Source: Desulfuromonadales bacterium (lineage in GTDB: Bacteria > Desulfobacterota > Desulfuromonadia > Desulfuromonadales > DASPGW01). From it: a stretch of 32,058 bases of DNA. The notes below the pieces were generated by a model. It had not been told where the DNA came from. It ran no database searches and was given only the letters and a program-made list of their open reading frames with translations. The stretch lies in assembly GCA_035620395.1 (NCBI GenBank), contig DASPGW010000159.1:1-32058 (forward strand). The letters are read 5' to 3'. Below are positions 8,642-17,393 of the stretch, piece by piece (position 1 is the stretch's first letter; each line of letters begins with the position of its first letter). The translations under genes were made by a program, and so were the position numbers.

Positions 8642-10093
8642 GTGAATATTCTTCTTGTCTCTTCCGAAGTCGCCCCGTTTGCCAAGAGCGGCGGCATGGC
8701 CGATGTCGCCGGCGCCCTGCCCCGTGCCTTGCGCCAACTCGGCCACGACGTGCGCATCGTTTTGCCCTGCTACCGGACCGCCCGCCAGCGTTTCCCCATG
8801 GCAGAGACGGGGATCGTCATCGAGGCGGCCGTCGAAGGCCGGTCGCAACGGGCAGAGGTCCGGCAAACATCCCTGGACGATGTTCCGGTCTATCTTATCG
8901 ACCAGCCCCGCTATTTCGACCGTGACGGCCTCTACGGCACACCTGCCGGCGATTACCCGGACAACGCCCAGCGCTTCGGCTTCTTCTGCCGCGCCGTGCT
9001 CGAACTGCCCCGGCTCCTCCACTGGCGCCCCGACATGCTGCACTGCAACGACTGGCAGAGCGGCCTGGTGCCGGTGCTGCTGCGCACCGCCCACCGCGAC
9101 GACCCTTACCTTGCCGCCACCGGCAGCCTGCTGACCATCCACAACCTCGGCTACCAGGGTGTTTTCCCGGCCGGGGTGTTCGACACCCTCGACCTCGACC
9201 CGCGCCTCTTCACCCCCGCCGCCCTCGAATACTGGGGGCAGGTCTCCTTTCTCAAGGGAGGAGTGGTCTTCGCCGACCGCGTCAACACCGTCTCCGAGAC
9301 CTACTGCCTGGAGACCCTCATGCCCGAGTACGGCTTCGGTTTCGAGGGAATCCTGCGCGCCCGCGGCGCCGCCTACAGCGGCATCCTCAACGGCCTCGAC
9401 GAGCGGCAGTGGAACCCGGCCACCGACGCCGCCCTTGAGCAGACCTTCAGCGCCGCCGACCTTTCGGGCAAGGCGGCCTGCAAGCGCGCCCTGCAGCAGG
9501 CACTGGGCCTGACAGTCGACCCGGCCATCCCGCTGATCGCCATGGTCACCCGCCTCGACACGCAGAAGGGGCTCGACCTGGTGGAGCAGGCCTGGGAGGG
9601 GTTGCTGGAACGCAGGGTGCAGTTGGTCCTGCTGGGGACGGGAGAGGAGAAGCACATGCGCTTCTTCGCCGGCGTCCAGGGACACCACCCGGAGCAGGTC
9701 TCGATCCACCTCGAATTCGACGACGCCCTCTCCCGGCGCATTTACGCCGGCAGCGACCTTTTCCTGATGCCGAGCCGCTACGAACCGTGCGGCCTCGGCC
9801 AGTTGATCGCCCTGCGCTACGGCAGCATCCCGGTGGTGCGCCGCACCGGCGGTCTCGCCGATACCGTCATCGATCCGGCCGAGGATGCGGCGGCAGCCAA
9901 CGGCTTCACCTTCGGCGAGCCGTCTCCCCTCTCGATGCTGATCGCCCTCGACCGCGCGCTCGGCCTCTATCGGCAGCCGCAGCCCTGGCTGGCGATGGTC
10001 AGGCGGGGGATGCAGCAGGACTTCTCCTGGGACCGCTCGGCGCAGCACTACCTGGATCTCTACCGGCAGGCGAAGGAGGCGAAGGGTGCCTGA
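8642..10093 (+). CDS. glgA: Glycogen synthase (ADP-glucose type)
   Basis: The 483-residue protein is a GT5 glycogen/starch synthase, which adds glucose from ADP-glucose to an alpha-1,4-glucan. The N-terminus is typical (NILLVSSEVAPF), followed by KSGGMADVAGALP, the GlgA version of the KxGGL nucleotide-sugar loop. The C-terminal half has VTRLDTQKGLDL, LLGTGEEKH, and the conserved block SRYEPCGLGQLIALRYGSIPVVRRTGGLADTV. Length is usual for the family. The start is a GTG; no strong Shine-Dalgarno is visible, but starting later would remove the conserved first strand. It follows the GH13 gene and overlaps the small acidic gene downstream by 8 nt. Confidence 0.95.
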   Translation: MNILLVSSEVAPFAKSGGMADVAGALPRALRQLGHDVRIVLPCYRTARQRFPMAETGIVIEAAVEGRSQRAEVRQTSLDDVPVYLIDQPRYFDRDGLYGTPAGDYPDNAQRFGFFCRAVLELPRLLHWRPDMLHCNDWQSGLVPVLLRTAHRDDPYLAATGSLLTIHNLGYQGVFPAGVFDTLDLDPRLFTPAALEYWGQVSFLKGGVVFADRVNTVSETYCLETLMPEYGFGFEGILRARGAAYSGILNGLDERQWNPATDAALEQTFSAADLSGKAACKRALQQALGLTVDPAIPLIAMVTRLDTQKGLDLVEQAWEGLLERRVQLVLLGTGEEKHMRFFAGVQGHHPEQVSIHLEFDDALSRRIYAGSDLFLMPSRYEPCGLGQLIALRYGSIPVVRRTGGLADTVIDPAEDAAAANGFTFGEPSPLSMLIALDRALGLYRQPQPWLAMVRRGMQQDFSWDRSAQHYLDLYRQAKEAKGA

Positions 10094-10334
10094 GGGACTG
10101 AAGCAGAACGGGACGGCGCCCGCGGCAAGCGACGCGCCGGCGGCGGAGGAAAAGAAGGGAAAGCTCTTCCCCGAACTGGAAGAGCTGCAGCAGGAGATCG
10201 ACCGCCGCATCCGCGACAACAAGCGCTTTCTCGAGCGCTTCCTCGACGAGGACTTCAACGACGACGAGGACTTCAACGACGACGAGGAGGCGAAGGACGG
10301 GGAGGACGAGGAAGAGGATTTCGAGGAATTGTAG
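10086..10334 (+). CDS. Small acidic protein overlapping glgA
   Basis: An 82-residue hypothetical protein, not recognised. It starts with GTG inside the last codons of glgA, with GGAGG 6 nt upstream, so it is probably translated with glgA. The first 25 residues are Ala/Pro/Glu-rich. A helical stretch follows (about 28-52, LFPELEELQQEIDRRIRDNKRFLERFL), then an almost entirely acidic tail of Asp, Glu and Asn ending EEDFEEL. The tail contains DFNDDE twice, from a perfect 18-bp tandem duplication. No membrane segment or signal peptide. A GlgA accessory or regulatory role is a guess from overlap only. Codon use matches its neighbours, which supports a real gene. Confidence 0.75.
   Translation: MPEGLKQNGTAPAASDAPAAEEKKGKLFPELEELQQEIDRRIRDNKRFLERFLDEDFNDDEDFNDDEEAKDGEDEEEDFEEL
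10251..10286 (+). repeat. 18-bp tandem duplication inside the acidic tail
   Basis: The 18-bp unit GACTTCAACGACGACGAG occurs twice in direct succession, identical in both copies, and encodes DFNDDE twice. This is typical of slippage expansion in a low-complexity acidic tail. Confidence 0.9.
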
Positions 10335-10508: not shown

Positions 10509-11675
10509 TTACGCCCCTTCCAGCCACCCCCGGATCGCCGCTTCCGTCTCGCCCCACCCCTCGCCCAGCCGCTCGGCGAGGAAGGTGGCGAAGAGGCTGT
10601 CGAAGAGCTGCAGTCCCTCCTCCAGCACTGCCATCCGCTCGTAGAAGACCGCCATCTGCTCGCTCGCCTCGTCGGTAAGGGCGTCCTTCTCCGGCTTCAC
10701 CGCCGGCGCCTTGAAGGAGGCGAAGGCGAAGACCTCTCCCTTGAGGTTGAGCCGCCAGAGGTGCTCCCCCTTCTCCAGGTAGAGGACCGCCTCCTGGATC
10801 TCCTTGCCGGCGCGCAGCGCCGTCACCACCTCGCCGAAGCTGTCCTGCGGACCGGTGACGGCGATCTTCTGCACCCCCGCCTCGCCGCCGCCGACCAGCA
10901 CCAGCCGGTCGTTGAGGGTGGCGACGAATCCTTCCCCTTCCAGCGACTGCCCGGGACGGCAGACCTGGTAGACCGAGTCGGCGTTCATCGTCCGGTACAT
11001 CAGCCAGAGGAGCAGGTCGCGGCCGAGCCATCGGTTGTCGCGGATCAGCTCGAGGACGCCGTCGCCGGCGGCCTGGTTGGCCTTCGCCAGGAGCGGCTGG
11101 AGAGCGGGCGCCACCACCTCTTCGGCGCGGGCATAGGGATGGTAGGCGACCAGGCGAAAACCGTCGAACGTCTGCTTGAAGAGAACCTCGAACTGGTCGA
11201 CCACCTTGGCGCTGAGGCTTGCCAGGGTGAGCAGGCCGCTGCGGGTGTCCCAGACGGCATCCCAGACCGCCGGGGCCGGCAGGGTCTTGGCCAGCAGCGC
11301 ACCGTGAACCGCCTCCTTGAGCTCCTCGCGCTTCGCCTTCGGCACCCGCTGCAGCCCCGGGTGCTGGGAGAGGAACTGGCGCTCGGCCTGCTGCATCCAG
11401 GCCTTCAACAGCGCCGGCGGCACCTTGCGCTGATCGCGGCGCAGGGTGAAGGTGAGCCAGTGGTCGCGGCAGAAGCTGGCGGGGTTGGCGAAACCGCTCT
11501 CGCGGGTGTCGTCGAGCTGGACCCAGCCGACGGAAAGCTCTTCTGCGTTGTGTTCGATGGACTGGAAGCCCTTGGCGGCGAGCTTTTCGCCGGCCCAGGC
11601 GCCGAGGTCGCCGGCGGGCAGATCACCGACGACGCGGAACTGACAGATGCTGACGGTGTTGCTGAGTAGACCCAT
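10509..11675 (-). CDS. rdgC: RdgC-family recombination-associated protein
   Basis: The 388-residue protein resembles RdgC, a ring-forming DNA-binding protein that limits RecA-dependent recombination. Recognisable blocks are the start GLLSNTVSICQFRV, LTFTLRRDQRKVPPALLKAWM, the KAKREELKEAV segment, and WDTRSGLLTLASLSAKVVDQFEVLFKQTF, which corresponds to the family pattern of a short strand followed by an ASAK helix. It is longer than E. coli RdgC (about 300 residues), with extra C-terminal sequence. The ATG at 11675 is preceded by AAGGAG on the minus strand. A 65-bp sequence that recurs 1.9 kb away begins directly upstream of this RBS and would form the leader or promoter region. Convergent with the glycogen operon. 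Confidence 0.8.
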   Translation of the reverse strand: MGLLSNTVSICQFRVVGDLPAGDLGAWAGEKLAAKGFQSIEHNAEELSVGWVQLDDTRESGFANPASFCRDHWLTFTLRRDQRKVPPALLKAWMQQAERQFLSQHPGLQRVPKAKREELKEAVHGALLAKTLPAPAVWDAVWDTRSGLLTLASLSAKVVDQFEVLFKQTFDGFRLVAYHPYARAEEVVAPALQPLLAKANQAAGDGVLELIRDNRWLGRDLLLWLMYRTMNADSVYQVCRPGQSLEGEGFVATLNDRLVLVGGGEAGVQKIAVTGPQDSFGEVVTALRAGKEIQEAVLYLEKGEHLWRLNLKGEVFAFASFKAPAVKPEKDALTDEASEQMAVFYERMAVLEEGLQLFDSLFATFLAERLGEGWGETEAAIRGWLEGA

Positions 11676-11688
11676 GGTACGGCTCCTT

Positions 11689-11753
11689 GCTTTGGGGTTG
11701 TTCGGAGCGTTATGGGATACACCTTTTCGGCGGTGGGGGCAAGGGGGAAGTTG
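11689..11753. repeat. Direct repeat A, copy 1 (65 bp)
   Basis: This 65-bp sequence starts GCTTTGGGGTTGTTCGGAG and ends AAGGGGGAAGTTG. It recurs in the same orientation at 13597-13659 with only two one-base length differences, both in homopolymers. It lies immediately upstream of the rdgC RBS, so it marks the left boundary of the accessory patch. Confidence 0.95.
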
Positions 11754-12105
11754 GTCGGGCCAGCAACTATGGTCGAAGCATTAATAAACACTATTGACTC
11801 TGGGATGTTGCAGAGGTAAAAAGGGGAGACGTTTTTTCCGGTGGAGGTGGGGAGATGGCCGGAACCCCGAATCACAGATCGACACATCCAAGCCGCCCGT
11901 AACCGGCCCCGCGCCGGCGGGCGGCTCTTTGCATTCACGGGAAGGGGCGTTGAAAATCGGGGCAACGCTGCTGCCTGGGCAGAAGAGAACCCGGCAACGG
12001 GTCGAGGTCTACGGCAACACTCCGCCGGTGTCCGGTACTGCTGCGGAAAGGTCATTAAATACATGAAAACTGTATTTTAACCACAAATAATCAAGGAGTT
12101 TGCCC
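11754..12105. other. Spacer without a gene; one GC-rich hairpin
   Basis: No convincing coding region was found between repeat A and the first lipoprotein gene. Short frames here lack an RBS and recognisable content. The clearest structure is a hairpin at 11891-11926: AGCCGCCCG pairs with CGGGCGGCT, and inside it CCGGC pairs with GCCGG with a 3-nt bulge, followed by CTTTGC rather than a T-run. From about 12050 the sequence turns AT-rich toward the lipoprotein gene, so a promoter could lie there, but no strong -35/-10 pair stands out. Confidence 0.5.
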
Positions 12106-12732
12106 ATGTACAAAAACTTGAATGTTGGTAAAAGTTTGTTGCTACTTTTTCTTTGCCTCCTGCTTTCCGGTTGCGCAGTCTTTCGTGGTGGAAAAATACC
12201 TGAAGTGAATTTAATGCCGTTAGAAAAGACAGATCAGCCGAAGCCATCCATCTCATATGACATAAAGTCTATGGGTGGTCTTTTCGATACCGCTAACTCG
12301 TCAGAGCACATCCAGAGTATCATTGCGGGTGAATTATTACAGACTTTGGAACAAACAAACTATTTTAGTCGCATTTCAAAAAAAGATGAAGAAGCAGATC
12401 TTAGCCTCTCAGTTACGGTTAAAAATTCTGGCAATCCAGCAGCCATGATTCCTGCCTTTATTACAGGGTTAAGCCTTTACATTATACCATCATGGGCTAC
12501 AGACAATTTTGAGGTCACTGCTATAGCCAAAAATCGACAAGGACATAGCAAAGAATATGTTTTGTCCGACTCTACGACTTTAGTTCAATGGCTGCCAATG
12601 ATCTTCGTATTCCCGGCAAAAAACTTTTCTGTAATTCCGGAAGTAAGGAAGAACATATACAGGAATATTATTATGCAAATGAAAAATGATGGATTTATTT
12701 CAAACGACCCCACAGTAAAAGTGTCTGGTTAA
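12106..12732 (+). CDS. Predicted lipoprotein, AT-rich gene
   Basis: A 208-residue protein with a lipoprotein signal: Lys-containing N-terminus, hydrophobic stretch LLLLFLCLLL and lipobox LSGC at about residues 20-23. The mature part has no recognised domain. It contains a hydrophobic patch GLSLYIIPSWATDNFEVTA and later WLPMIFVFPAKNF. No function is assigned; it is presumably anchored to the outer or inner membrane. The ATG at 12106 has AAGGAG 7 nt upstream; an in-frame TTG two codons earlier is too close to the RBS. Codon and base use are markedly AT-richer than neighbouring genes, suggesting horizontal acquisition. It is followed by a second lipoprotein gene on the same strand. Confidence 0.8.
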   Translation: MYKNLNVGKSLLLLFLCLLLSGCAVFRGGKIPEVNLMPLEKTDQPKPSISYDIKSMGGLFDTANSSEHIQSIIAGELLQTLEQTNYFSRISKKDEEADLSLSVTVKNSGNPAAMIPAFITGLSLYIIPSWATDNFEVTAIAKNRQGHSKEYVLSDSTTLVQWLPMIFVFPAKNFSVIPEVRKNIYRNIIMQMKNDGFISNDPTVKVSG

Positions 12733-12834
12733 AACCAATAAAAACATAACAATCGGCAAGTCCCCGGCTTCCGCCTTGGGATTTATGCTCTGACTGCAGA
12801 CGAATTCTGCCCTAAACAAAAATTGGCCCATTTC

Positions 12835-12853
12835 AGATGGGATTATCCCATCT
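12835..12853. promoter_or_regulatory. Perfect 8-bp hairpin upstream of lipoprotein gene 2
   Basis: AGATGGGA and TCCCATCT pair perfectly around a TTA loop, ending about 10 nt before the AAGGAGG RBS of the gene at 12875. It may be an operator or an RNA hairpin affecting expression of this gene. No T-run follows, so a terminator is unlikely. Confidence 0.5.
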
Positions 12854-12874
12854 CGTTGTCATCAAGGAGGAAGT

Positions 12875-13351
12875 ATGCAAAAGCTTATCCCGGTTATCTT
12901 CTTATGTTTCTTGTCAGGATGTGCTTCGATCGTTTCAGGCGGGCCTGAAATAGTGACCATCAGTTCAAACCCGCCTGAAGCCAAAATGACCCTTTGCAAC
13001 GATCGTACAAAGCAGTGCATGGCAATCGGGCAGACCCCCTACACCGCAACCCTCGATAGAAGCCAGGGGTTTTTTACTCCAGCCAGATATTCTATTAAAT
13101 GTGAAAAGCCAGGCTTCGGCCCTGCTGAGAGAACCCTCTCTGCCGGAATGAACGGCTGGTACGCCGGGAATATCATTTTTGGTGGACTCATCGGTTTACT
13201 TATTGTCGACCCGGCCACGGGGGCCATGTGGGATATCAAGGAACACAATATGGTCCTGAATCTTTCCCCTTTGGCCATCGAGCCTGAGAAACCCCAAATT
13301 GTCCCGGACAGCCCCGCGCCACAACAAGAGATCGAAAAGTCCCAATCATAA
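12875..13351 (+). CDS. Predicted lipoprotein with PEGA-like segment
   Basis: A 158-residue protein starting MQKLIPVIFLCFLSGC, a short signal peptide with lipobox LSGC, Cys at residue 16. Residues about 25-75 (VTISSNPPEAKMTLCN...GQTPYTATLDR) resemble a PEGA-type beta domain, with the SxPxGA-like turn and the G-TP motif. A second hydrophobic Gly-rich segment (GNIIFGGLIGLLIVDPATGAMWDI) lies at about 108-132 and could insert in a membrane. The C-terminus is Pro/Glu-rich. The RBS AAGGAGG is strong. It forms a same-strand pair with the preceding lipoprotein gene, 142 nt away; similar lipoprotein pairs of unknown role occur in proteobacteria. Composition is closer to the host than that of its partner. 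Confidence 0.8.
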   Translation: MQKLIPVIFLCFLSGCASIVSGGPEIVTISSNPPEAKMTLCNDRTKQCMAIGQTPYTATLDRSQGFFTPARYSIKCEKPGFGPAERTLSAGMNGWYAGNIIFGGLIGLLIVDPATGAMWDIKEHNMVLNLSPLAIEPEKPQIVPDSPAPQQEIEKSQS

Positions 13352-13357
13352 ATCCCA

Positions 13358-13391
13358 GAGGGGACAAAATGCGCGGTTAACGTCTGTATCG
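13358..13391. repeat. Direct repeat B, copy 1 (34 bp)
   Basis: A 34-bp sequence beginning GAGGGGACAAAA and ending GCGGTTAACGTCTGTATCG. It recurs at 14396-14429 in the same orientation with only a 3-base difference in the middle (TGC here, CAA there). It sits directly before the transposase relic. Confidence 0.9.
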
Positions 13392-13393
13392 CG

Positions 13394-13563
13394 CATCGAC
13401 CATCTCTTGAAGAGCTGTTTGCAGGTAAGGATAGCAAAGAGAAAAAGTCCTTGGCCGCCTTGCAGCCCATGTTGAACGGAGTTACCCGCTGAAGGATATA
13501 GGGTGCTTTCTCGGGCGCCACTATGCCACTGTCAGCAAGATGCTCAAGTGGGCCGGAGCGTAA
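13394..13563 (+). pseudogene. Frameshifted C-terminal relic of an IS200/RAYT-like transposase
   Basis: Two short frames together read as the C-terminal part of a REP-associated (Y1/IS200-like) transposase. Frame one begins at 13394 with HRPSLEELFAGKDSKEKKSLAA. After a shift near 13465 the next frame gives AHVERSYPLKDIGCFLGRHYATVSKMLKWAGA and a stop at 13561-13563. The second part is a helix-turn-helix of the type that ends many RAYT proteins (pattern YxLKEIxxxLGxHYxTVSxxxK). The catalytic N-terminal domain with HUH and Tyr is absent, so this is a decayed remnant. Family assignment is from pattern recognition only. Confidence 0.7.
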
Positions 13564-13596
13564 AAACTGGCAAGGCAAGACTTGACCCCCCACTTT

Positions 13597-13659
13597 GCTT
13601 TGGGTTGTTCGGAGCGTTATGGGATACACCTTTCGGCGGTGGGGGCAAGGGGGAAGTTG
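13597..13659. repeat. Direct repeat A, copy 2 (63 bp)
   Basis: This is the second copy of the 65-bp sequence found upstream of rdgC at 11689-11753, in the same orientation. It lies between the transposase relic and the ccdAB promoter region. The only differences are one G fewer and one T fewer in homopolymer runs. Confidence 0.95.
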
Positions 13660-13704
13660 CAACCGGCGACGGTACACCAATTGGATACCAATGAATTTAT
13701 CCGC

Positions 13705-13733
13705 TTGACCGATAAAGGATGGACAGCGATACT
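13705..13733 (+). promoter_or_regulatory. Candidate sigma-70 promoter for ccdAB
   Basis: TTGACC (13705-13710) and GATACT (13728-13733) are separated by exactly 17 bp, about 30 nt before the ccdA start. ATGCGCAT, an 8-bp palindrome, lies between the -10 and the RBS at 13744-13751 and could be an autoregulatory operator, as is usual for CcdAB systems. Confidence 0.6.
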
Positions 13734-13763
13734 ATACGCATTAGATGCGCATGGAGGTTCTAA

Positions 13764-13997
13764 ATGGGAAATACCGCAAAAAAATTGCCGGCGAACCTGA
13801 GTATCCGCAGCGACCTGCTTCGAGAAGCCAAGGAACGCAAAATCAATCTTTCGCAGACCCTGGAGGAACGGTTGGAAGAGATTCTGCGCGAGCAGAACCG
13901 CCAGGCTTGGCGGGAGGAGAACAAGGAAGCCATCCAGGCTGCCAACGATTTCGTCGCCAGGCACGGCCTCTGGAGCGATGGGTTGAGGCGCTTCTAA
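13764..13997 (+). CDS. ccdA: CcdA-family antitoxin
   Basis: A 77-residue protein that fits CcdA antitoxins in size and layout. An N-terminal ribbon-helix-helix-like DNA-binding part (about 5-45: KLPANLSIRSDLLREAKERKINLSQTLEERLEEIL) is followed by a C-terminal toxin-binding tail with the typical stretch WREENKEAIQAANDFVARHGLWSDGLRRF. The protein should bind and neutralise CcdB and repress its own promoter. GGAGG precedes the ATG by 8 nt. The stop overlaps the start of the toxin gene (TAATG). It lies within a repeat-bounded accessory patch. Confidence 0.9.
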   Translation: MGNTAKKLPANLSIRSDLLREAKERKINLSQTLEERLEEILREQNRQAWREENKEAIQAANDFVARHGLWSDGLRRF

Positions 13998-14311
13998 TGG
14001 CCCAGTTCGATATCTACGCGAATCCGAACCAGGGACCTGAAGAACCGGTCAAATACCTCCTGGACCTGCAGGCCGAAATCCTTGAGGATCTGCCGACTCG
14101 GGTGGTCGCGCCGCTCGTTGCGCCGGACAGCCTCGGCCCATCCATGCGGATTCTCAACCCCCGGATTTTTGTTCATGGCGAACCATATATCCTGCTGTCA
14201 CATCTCCTCGCCGCAATTCCCGCCAAGTCCCTTGGCTTGTCAGTCGATTCAGCGAAAACGCAGCGGGACGAGGTCATTCGCTCCGTCGATTTTCTTTTCA
14301 CCGGCACCTGA
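13997..14311 (+). CDS. ccdB: CcdB-family toxin (gyrase poison)
   Basis: A 104-residue protein with the length and sequence pattern of CcdB: AQFDIYANPN at the start, KYLLDLQAEILEDLPTRVVAPL, then ILNPRIFVHGEPYILLSHLLAAIPAKSLG. CcdB toxins trap DNA gyrase on DNA. The ATG overlaps the antitoxin stop by one base, the usual antitoxin-first order, with translational coupling. The C-terminus reads VIRSVDFLFTGT; in F-plasmid CcdB the C-terminal W-G-I residues are essential for gyrase poisoning, and they are not obvious here, as in many chromosomal homologues. Activity cannot be judged from sequence. Confidence 0.9.
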   Translation: MAQFDIYANPNQGPEEPVKYLLDLQAEILEDLPTRVVAPLVAPDSLGPSMRILNPRIFVHGEPYILLSHLLAAIPAKSLGLSVDSAKTQRDEVIRSVDFLFTGT

Positions 14312-14313
14312 TT

Positions 14314-14328
14314 GAAGACAGCGTCTTC
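14314..14328. terminator. Short hairpin after ccdB
   Basis: GAAGAC-AGC-GTCTTC forms a perfect 6-bp stem beginning 2 nt after the ccdB stop. It is followed by GGAAGTTCG, not a T-run, so terminator function is uncertain. Confidence 0.35.
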
Positions 14329-14395
14329 GGAAGTTCGAGGGACCGCAAAACCTGATTCGTAGCGGAAGAATGCTGAAGGGTGCCCTCTGCACGCC

Positions 14396-14429
14396 GAGGG
14401 GACAAAACAAGCGGTTAACGTCTGTATCG
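14396..14429. repeat. Direct repeat B, copy 2 (34 bp)
   Basis: This is the second copy of the 34-bp repeat at 13358-13391. It ends where the GGGGAGG ribosome-binding sequence of the gene at 14446 begins, so it marks the right boundary of the accessory patch. Confidence 0.9.
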
Positions 14430-14445: not shown

Positions 14446-15030
14446 ATGATCGTGTCCTTGAGCCGCCAATACCTCAATCGCCATGCCGTTCCGGTTATCG
14501 AACGGGTCGATACCGCCATCTTCGAGCGAACCTGCTCGCCGCACTGCGCGAGCTGCGCCTTCTGCAACGACGCCTGCTGCGCTTTCGGGGTCTGCGTCGA
14601 CCTGGACAACGTGCGTCGCATCGAAGGCTGCGCCGACCGACTGGAGGGTTACCTCAGAATTCCGCGCGACCAGTGGTTTACGGGAAATGATGTTCCAGAC
14701 CCCGAGTACCCGGGCGGCAGCTACATGCGCACCCGGGTCGTCGGGGGAGCCTGCGTGTTCCTGAACCGGGCCGGGCGCGGCTGCCTGCTCCACGCCTTCT
14801 GTCTGGCCGAAGGTCTGGACCATCACCTCCTCAAGCCGATGTTCAGCTCCCTCTTTCCGGTAACGGCCGAGGCGGGACTGCTGCGCCCGGCGGCCGAGGT
14901 GCTCGACGAATCCCTGGCCTGCCTGGGCGGGGGGCTCACGCTATACCGGGGGGCGCGGGGCGATCTGCAGTACTACTATGGGGATGCCCTCATCCGGGAG
15001 CTGGACCGACTGGAGACCCGCGACAAATAA
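14446..15030 (+). CDS. Cys-rich protein, YkgJ/DUF3109-like
   Basis: A 194-residue soluble protein with seven cysteines in 21 residues near the N-terminus (C30, C34, C37, C40, C44, C45, C50; CSPHCASCAFCNDACCAFGVC). Further cysteines occur in GACVFLNRAGRGCLLHAFCLAEG. The pattern is like the zinc/iron-chelating Cys-cluster families (YkgJ, DUF3109), whose biochemical role is poorly known. No signal peptide or membrane segment. The ATG has GGGGAGG about 10 nt upstream; the 34-bp repeat B lies right before it. It was presumably divergent from rdgC before the accessory patch was inserted. A second Cys-cluster protein is encoded at 16683. Confidence 0.75.
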   Translation: MIVSLSRQYLNRHAVPVIERVDTAIFERTCSPHCASCAFCNDACCAFGVCVDLDNVRRIEGCADRLEGYLRIPRDQWFTGNDVPDPEYPGGSYMRTRVVGGACVFLNRAGRGCLLHAFCLAEGLDHHLLKPMFSSLFPVTAEAGLLRPAAEVLDESLACLGGGLTLYRGARGDLQYYYGDALIRELDRLETRDK

Positions 15031-16455: not shown

Positions 16456-16682
16456 GGTAAAACCCTCAGGGGAGAATACCCCGGAGCTCTGCTGCTCCGG
16501 CCCCCCGACCGTTAAGGGCCATCTTATTCCAACCGGGCTTTTATTTCCAGCATTTCGGCAGGTTGCAGAAATGACTGAGACGCAGAAAAATTCCGCGCAT
16601 CGCCGGAAGGGGATTGACGGACGGCCCCAGGAGTTGTATCTAGCCTGTGGAAGCGGTCCTTTTTCGTCGGAGATGGGGATGC

Positions 16683-17393
16683 ATGTGGCAATCGCTTGAT
16701 TACTGGATCCGGCAGCAGCTGGCGCTGTTTGACGAGAAGGCCGGGGCGTCGGCCGAAACCTTTGCGGCCGGACGCGGCCGCATCTACTGCGGCCGGGGCT
16801 GCCGGAACTGCTGCAATCTGGCGGTCCAGTGCACCTTCACCGAGGCGCTGCCGGTCGCCGAAGCGTTGAGCGACGAGCAGGCCGCCACCCTGGGCGGTCA
16901 CGTCGCCCGCCTGCGGCAGCACCTCGCGGAGGTCTCCGACCTCAAGTCGTACCTGCGCCTGCACCGACAGGCCATCGGCTGCTGCCCCTTTCTCGGGGCG
17001 GACGGCGCCTGCGGCATCTACGCGGTGCGCCCCTTCGCCTGCCGCGCCCTCCTTTCCACCCGCCCCGCCGACTGGTGCGCCGTCGACTTCGCCGAGCTCC
17101 ACCCGCTGGAAAAGCAGGCCTACCTGAGCAGCCTCGATCCCGCCGTGGTCGCCTGGCCCACCCACTACCTCGCCGCTCCCCGCAACCTCGCCCAGGAGAT
17201 GGAAGCGGCAGCCGCCTGGCGGATGTTCGACACCTTCGGCTTCACCCTGAGCGGCAACCTCCCCTTTCTTGTCTGGCTGGAGAAGGAATACCGATTGAGC
17301 GCGGTGGCGGCCCAAGGGCACGCGGCGACACTCGCTCTGCTCGAAAAAGAGGGCCTGAGCCTCCCCTTTCTGGTCAGTCTCCATCGGCAATAA
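16683..17393 (+). CDS. YkgJ-family Cys-cluster protein
   Basis: A 236-residue protein with the YkgJ-type zinc/iron-chelating cluster: CGRGCRNCCNLAVQC (C36, C40, C43, C44, C50), then CCPFL...CGIYAVRPFACR. The biochemical function of the family is not established. The ATG at 16683 is chosen because GGAG lies 10 nt upstream; an earlier in-frame start at 16647 has no RBS. No signal peptide or membrane segment. The C-terminal third (LPFLVWLEKEY...LPFLVSL) is leucine-rich. It is divergent from the diguanylate cyclase. Confidence 0.8.
   Translation: MWQSLDYWIRQQLALFDEKAGASAETFAAGRGRIYCGRGCRNCCNLAVQCTFTEALPVAEALSDEQAATLGGHVARLRQHLAEVSDLKSYLRLHRQAIGCCPFLGADGACGIYAVRPFACRALLSTRPADWCAVDFAELHPLEKQAYLSSLDPAVVAWPTHYLAAPRNLAQEMEAAAAWRMFDTFGFTLSGNLPFLVWLEKEYRLSAVAAQGHAATLALLEKEGLSLPFLVSLHRQ

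What the first reader, a model, noticed from the sequence alone, without database searches (positions are those of the whole stretch)
11689..14429. Accessory patch bounded by interleaved direct repeats A-B-A'-B'
A 65-bp repeat (11689, 13597) and a 34-bp repeat (13358, 14396) interleave. The outer copies abut the RBS of rdgC on the left and the RBS of the Cys-rich gene on the right. Between them lie two lipoprotein genes, a transposase relic and ccdAB, but no integrase. The repeats are far too long for target-site duplications. The order suggests two nested insertions or recombination-driven exchange of cassettes at a fixed site between two divergent core genes.
Basis: partly seen in the sequence, partly recalled or inferred. 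Interest (0 to 1): 0.62.

Follow-up and report, generated by a model that had tools for sequence, protein, structure and literature searches.

The report
Duplicated rdgC promoter around foreign genes
Two short repeats that alternate around a patch of acquired genes are real, but one is a copy of the host's own rdgC gene-control region, so the pattern looks like the scar of an ordinary duplication-type recombination event and not a new mobile element.

Summary
The interleaved repeats are real. A is 11687-11753 and 13595-13660, identical except for two 1-nt homopolymer gaps. B is 13358-13391 and 14396-14429, 31/34, all three differences in one contiguous block. Both far exceed chance. A is not part of a mobile element: it is the promoter/leader of rdgC. 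A TTGCC...AAAAGGTGTATCC motif lies upstream of rdgC in 19 of 37 upstream regions (window plus relatives), mostly 34-48 nt before the ATG. The left copy is therefore ancestral and the right copy ectopic. B occurs nowhere else in 277 genomes of the class. Between the inner copies lies the 3' end of a REP-associated transposase (RAYT), cut at B and ending in a typical REP five bases before the second A. The cargo (two lipoproteins, ccdAB) has lower G+C than its flanks. The A-B-A'-B' order fits one recent duplication-type event: unequal exchange, or circle integration, between two versions of the rdgC upstream region. A replication-repair filler is the main rival. "Fixed site between two core genes" is not supported: the Cys-rich gene is rare (4 of 136 genomes) and never beside rdgC in relatives. 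No same-family relative is held, so no empty site could be inspected. Ordinary genome plasticity, low interest.

The parts
10509..11675 (-). rdgC, left flank, core gene
   Evidence: PF04381 E=5.5e-8, above the curated cut-off; homologues in 53 of 58 genomes searched, up to 66% identity in relatives
11687..11753 (-). Repeat A, ancestral copy: rdgC promoter/leader (TTGCCC-N17-TATCCC on the minus strand)
   Evidence: Motif conserved upstream of rdgC in 19 of 37 upstream regions, against 0.075 expected in shuffles
12106..12732 (+). Lipoprotein gene 1 (208 aa, 39% G+C)
   Evidence: LLSGC lipobox; distant homologues in 4 other genomes of 277 in the class; no family match above a cut-off
12875..13351 (+). 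Lipoprotein gene 2 (158 aa, PEGA-like)
   Evidence: phrog_6823 E=2e-26; homologues at 41% identity in phages such as epsilon34; PEGA below cut-off
13358..13391 (.). Repeat B, inner copy (B1); carries TGC where B2 has CAA
   Evidence: 31/34 to B2; no other copy in the class
13392..13567 (+). RAYT 3'-end relic, 5'-truncated at B1, frameshifted
   Evidence: Two pieces in different frames with stops; matches the C-terminus of a RAYT in G009 (50% identity) and RAYTs in 8 other genomes; no homology extends into B
13568..13589 (.). REP-type end TGGCAAGGCAAGACTTGACCCC
   Evidence: Same 22-mer with 0-3 changes at other loci of the order, and as an inverted pair on contig C184 of this genome
13595..13660 (-). 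Repeat A', ectopic copy of the rdgC promoter/leader, spacer shortened by one base
   Evidence: Identical to A over all aligned bases, two 1-nt gaps
13764..13997 (+). ccdA antitoxin
   Evidence: PF07362 1-71/71, E=1.1e-24
13997..14311 (+). ccdB toxin, overlapping ccdA
   Evidence: PF01845 1-101/101, E=1.1e-25
14396..14429 (.). Repeat B', outer copy (B2), abutting the ribosome-binding site of the Cys-rich gene
14446..15030 (+). Cys-rich gene, right flank; rare, not core
   Evidence: 4 of 136 genomes of the order; no Pfam or NCBIfam match

Best explanation
The patch is a partial duplication of the region between rdgC and the Cys-rich gene, formed by one recent unequal exchange between two versions of that region that carried different cargo. 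Integration of a circle by a single crossover would leave the same product. One version was rdgC-A-(two lipoproteins)-B. The other had a RAYT/REP element next to A and read RAYT-REP-A-ccdAB-B-Cys gene. Joining the right end of B of the first to the interior of the RAYT gene of the second gives exactly A-lipoproteins-B-RAYT relic-A'-ccdAB-B'. A is the rdgC promoter; its second copy is a passenger. Shown: the repeats, the identity of A, the relic with its REP end, the contrast in G+C. Inferred: the two parental versions and the crossover. Expected consequence (inferred): recombination A x A' would delete the lipoproteins and keep ccdAB; B x B' would delete ccdAB, which the toxin-antitoxin pair should counter-select.
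For: The order A-B-A'-B' is the standard product of a tandem duplication or of single-crossover integration. The A copies differ only by two homopolymer slips, and B by one contiguous triplet that completes an inverted repeat with its new flank (ATGCGCG/CGCGCAT), so both pairs were probably identical when made, consistent with one recent event. The two cargo stretches share no significant homology, so a plain duplication of one version does not suffice. The outer A is the conserved rdgC promoter. The RAYT relic is cut at B1 and ends in a REP 5 nt before A'. Cargo stretches have 46% and 55% G+C, flanks 63-67%.
Against: Neither parental version was found: this is the only genome of its family held, and rdgC relatives of other families lack the Cys-rich gene beside rdgC. 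The proposed event joined B to RAYT without visible homology. The repeats are short, and sharp edges on all four copies also fit a templated filler.
Confidence: 0.5

Rival explanations
1. Templated filler: a single acquired island (lipoproteins plus ccdAB) carries an internal 303-bp block (B1-RAYT fragment-A', 13358-13660) copied by replication template switching during repair from B 1 kb away, a RAYT gene elsewhere, and A 1.9 kb away.
For: All pieces are short with sharp edges, and the templates for A and B are local and in the same orientation.
Against: Does not explain why the copied pieces are exactly the two sequences at the outer edges of the patch; no intact RAYT of this subtype was found in the genome.
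Confidence: 0.25
2. One reading: a fixed site where cassettes are repeatedly exchanged by recombination at A and B.
For: Both cargos sit between exactly the same edges (A right end, B left end), and the cargos are unrelated.
Against: A is a promoter conserved for rdgC, B is found nowhere else, the right-hand gene is not conserved beside rdgC, and no other cargo is known at A or B.
Confidence: 0.1
3. Plain tandem duplication of one A-cargo-B stretch, followed by RAYT insertion at the joint and deletion of different cargo from each copy.
For: The order fits; deletion endpoints would define the inner edges of A' and B1.
Against: Needs a duplication, an insertion and two deletions, yet the copies of A have no substitutions.
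Confidence: 0.1
4. Assembly error: interleaved repeats allow the two cargos to be swapped or wrongly joined.
For: Draft genome of 313 contigs; interleaved repeats are the classic ambiguous case for assembly.
Against: Repeats of 34-67 nt are shorter than common reads, and the copies differ enough to be told apart.
Confidence: 0.05

Closest known systems
Tandem duplication / Campbell-type (single-crossover) integration footprint
   Same: Direct repeats in the order A-B-A'-B'; recombination between copies would restore single-copy versions
   Different: The two copies enclose different cargo, and a RAYT fragment sits at the joint
RAYT / REP elements (IS200-like Y1 transposases with palindromic ends)
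   Same: C-terminal RAYT coding sequence followed by a REP end; REP pair elsewhere in this genome
   Different: Only the last ~55 codons remain, frameshifted; A and B are not its ends
Homologous exchange of cargo in accessory hotspots between conserved genes (e.g. PMC5635113, abstract only seen)
   Same: Acquired low-G+C genes without integrase between flanks shared by both copies
   Different: Right flank is not a core gene; no second cargo-bearing relative known

Membership tests
Tandem duplication / single-crossover integration footprint | Order A-B-A'-B' in the same orientation | tested here: met
Tandem duplication / single-crossover integration footprint | Copies of A and of B equally old | tested here: inconclusive
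   A has 0 substitutions and 2 slips; B one 3-nt block, possibly templated by the new flank
Plain tandem duplication | Same content between A and B in both copies | tested here: not met
   Cargos share no significant homology; two different parental versions, or a circle, are needed
Transposon / IS with target-site duplication | Repeats are element ends or short target duplications | tested here: not met
   A is the conserved rdgC promoter, B has no other copy
RAYT/REP element (relic) | RAYT coding sequence next to a REP sequence | tested here: met
   degraded, 3' part only
Cassette-exchange hotspot between core genes | Both flanks core and adjacent in relatives | tested here: not met
   Cys-rich gene in 4 of 136 genomes, not adjacent to rdgC in fetched loci
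Cassette-exchange hotspot between core genes | Different cargo between the same flanks in close relatives | not testable with these tools
   No other genome of the family is held

The most novel reading that the evidence does not exclude
The boundary between the rdgC promoter (A) and B is a preferred insertion point for small gene cassettes: two unrelated cargos sit between exactly the same A and B edges, without integrase, which could reflect an unknown site-directed capture mechanism.
Probability: 0.04. Interest if true: 0.65.

Novelty: new member of a known kind. Interest (0 to 1): 0.2.

Why it matters
Mostly as a worked example: apparent cassette boundaries can be duplicated host promoters. 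It also shows a conserved promoter-like element in front of rdgC across the order.

Tried and rejected
B as part of the RAYT gene or its REP: rejected, RAYT homology starts after B, and B was found at no RAYT locus looked at. B as conserved leader of the Cys-rich gene: absent upstream of both good orthologues. B in viruses: only 16-mer hits without the rest of B. A as part of a repeat family: strong hits are rdgC leaders only, plus one weaker promoter-like match on contig C78. Plasmid match to the patch: none. Co-travelling lipoproteins: lipoprotein 1 homologues are not next to lipoprotein 2 homologues within the fetched flanks. A first own-genome pattern search for B was mistyped by one base and is void; searches cover the point.

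Full report
Observation. Both repeat pairs exist, in direct orientation and interleaved. A is 11687-11753 / 13595-13660 and B is 13358-13391 / 14396-14429. Over their aligned bases the A copies are identical, apart from a missing G and a missing T in two homopolymer runs. The B copies differ only at TGC/CAA. Shuffled sequence gives at most 25 matches in 34 (20 shuffles), against 33 and 31 here.

What A is. Searching the joint B-relic-A' (13340-13680) in 136 genomes of the order returned A-like matches just upstream of rdgC in several other families: G012, 94% over 34 nt; G057, G046 and G019 (rdgC positions). Comparing rdgC upstream regions shows TTGCC-...-AAAAGGTGTATCC-type sequences in 19 of 37 (one organism, L012/L044, is counted twice), mostly 34-48 nt before the start codon, with 0.075 expected in shuffles. 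A is therefore the rdgC promoter/leader; that it acts as a promoter is inferred from the -35/-10-like arrangement. The copy next to rdgC is in its ancestral place and A' is ectopic. A' has lost one base of the spacer that A shares with relatives.

What B is. The 15-mer core of B has no further locus in this genome, and its one other hit in 277 genomes of the class lacks the rest of B. It is not upstream of the two good orthologues of the Cys-rich gene. Its origin stays unknown. The triplet TGC that distinguishes B1 makes a perfect 7-bp inverted repeat with the sequence right after B1 (ATGCGCG...CGCGCAT). This is what a quasipalindrome-templated change would give (inference), so B1 may have been identical to B2 when it was made.

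The relic. 13392-13567 encodes, in two frames, the C-terminus of a REP-associated tyrosine transposase. A long G009 reading frame (part of it masked as N) gives 50% protein and 77% nucleotide identity. It is followed by TGGCAAGGCAAGACTTGACCCC, a REP end found at other loci of the order and as an inverted pair in this genome. RAYT homology begins directly after B1, and the REP ends 5 nt before A'. Two other Y1 transposase genes exist in the genome, but without matches to the patch. RAYTs and REPs are described in PMC2817692 (abstract seen).

Cargo and flanks. G+C is 39% (lipoprotein 1), 50% (lipoprotein 2) and 56-57% (ccdA, ccdB), against 65-68% in rdgC, the Cys-rich gene and the GGDEF gene. 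Lipoprotein 2 resembles phage proteins. ccdAB is intact by Pfam; plasmid relatives of CcdB are about 40% identical. The Cys-rich gene is rare in the order and absent from every fetched rdgC neighbourhood of relatives (1.5 kb flanks for most, up to 8 kb for L039-L045), so the site is not one between two core genes.

Mechanism. Two simple nested insertions would give A-B-B'-A' or separate pairs. A-B-A'-B' is produced in one step by tandem duplication or by single-crossover integration of a circle. Because the cargo differs between the halves, the simplest single event is an unequal exchange between two versions of the region, one of which carried a RAYT/REP element beside A. Each step other than the present anatomy is inferred. 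The main rival is a templated filler block inserted by faulty replication. No other genome of the same family is held, so no empty or single-version site could be inspected.

Verdict. A real but ordinary footprint of recombination, with the useful correction that repeat A is a host promoter.

Noticed in passing
11687-11753 and rdgC loci L011, L014, L031, L039, L041, L045 and others: A motif TTGCC...AAAAGGTGTATCC lies at a near-constant distance upstream of rdgC in about half of the loci examined in the order; the spacer is conserved too, which hints at regulation beyond a plain promoter.
   Followed up: partly
13369-13396: B1 with its right flank forms a perfect inverted repeat ATGCGCG/CGCGCAT exactly where B1 differs from B2, suggesting a quasipalindrome-templated change.
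   Followed up: partly
G000:C184:18231-18302 (L002): Inverted pair of the GGCAAGACTTGACCC REP, REPIN-like, elsewhere in the genome.
   Followed up: partly
14446-15030 and 16647-17393: Two different Cys-rich proteins with CxxC-type clusters within 3 kb, on either side of a GGDEF gene; neither has an NCBIfam match.
   Followed up: no
10244-10288: Internal repeat in the acidic tail of a small ORF (10086-10334) after glgA.
   Followed up: no
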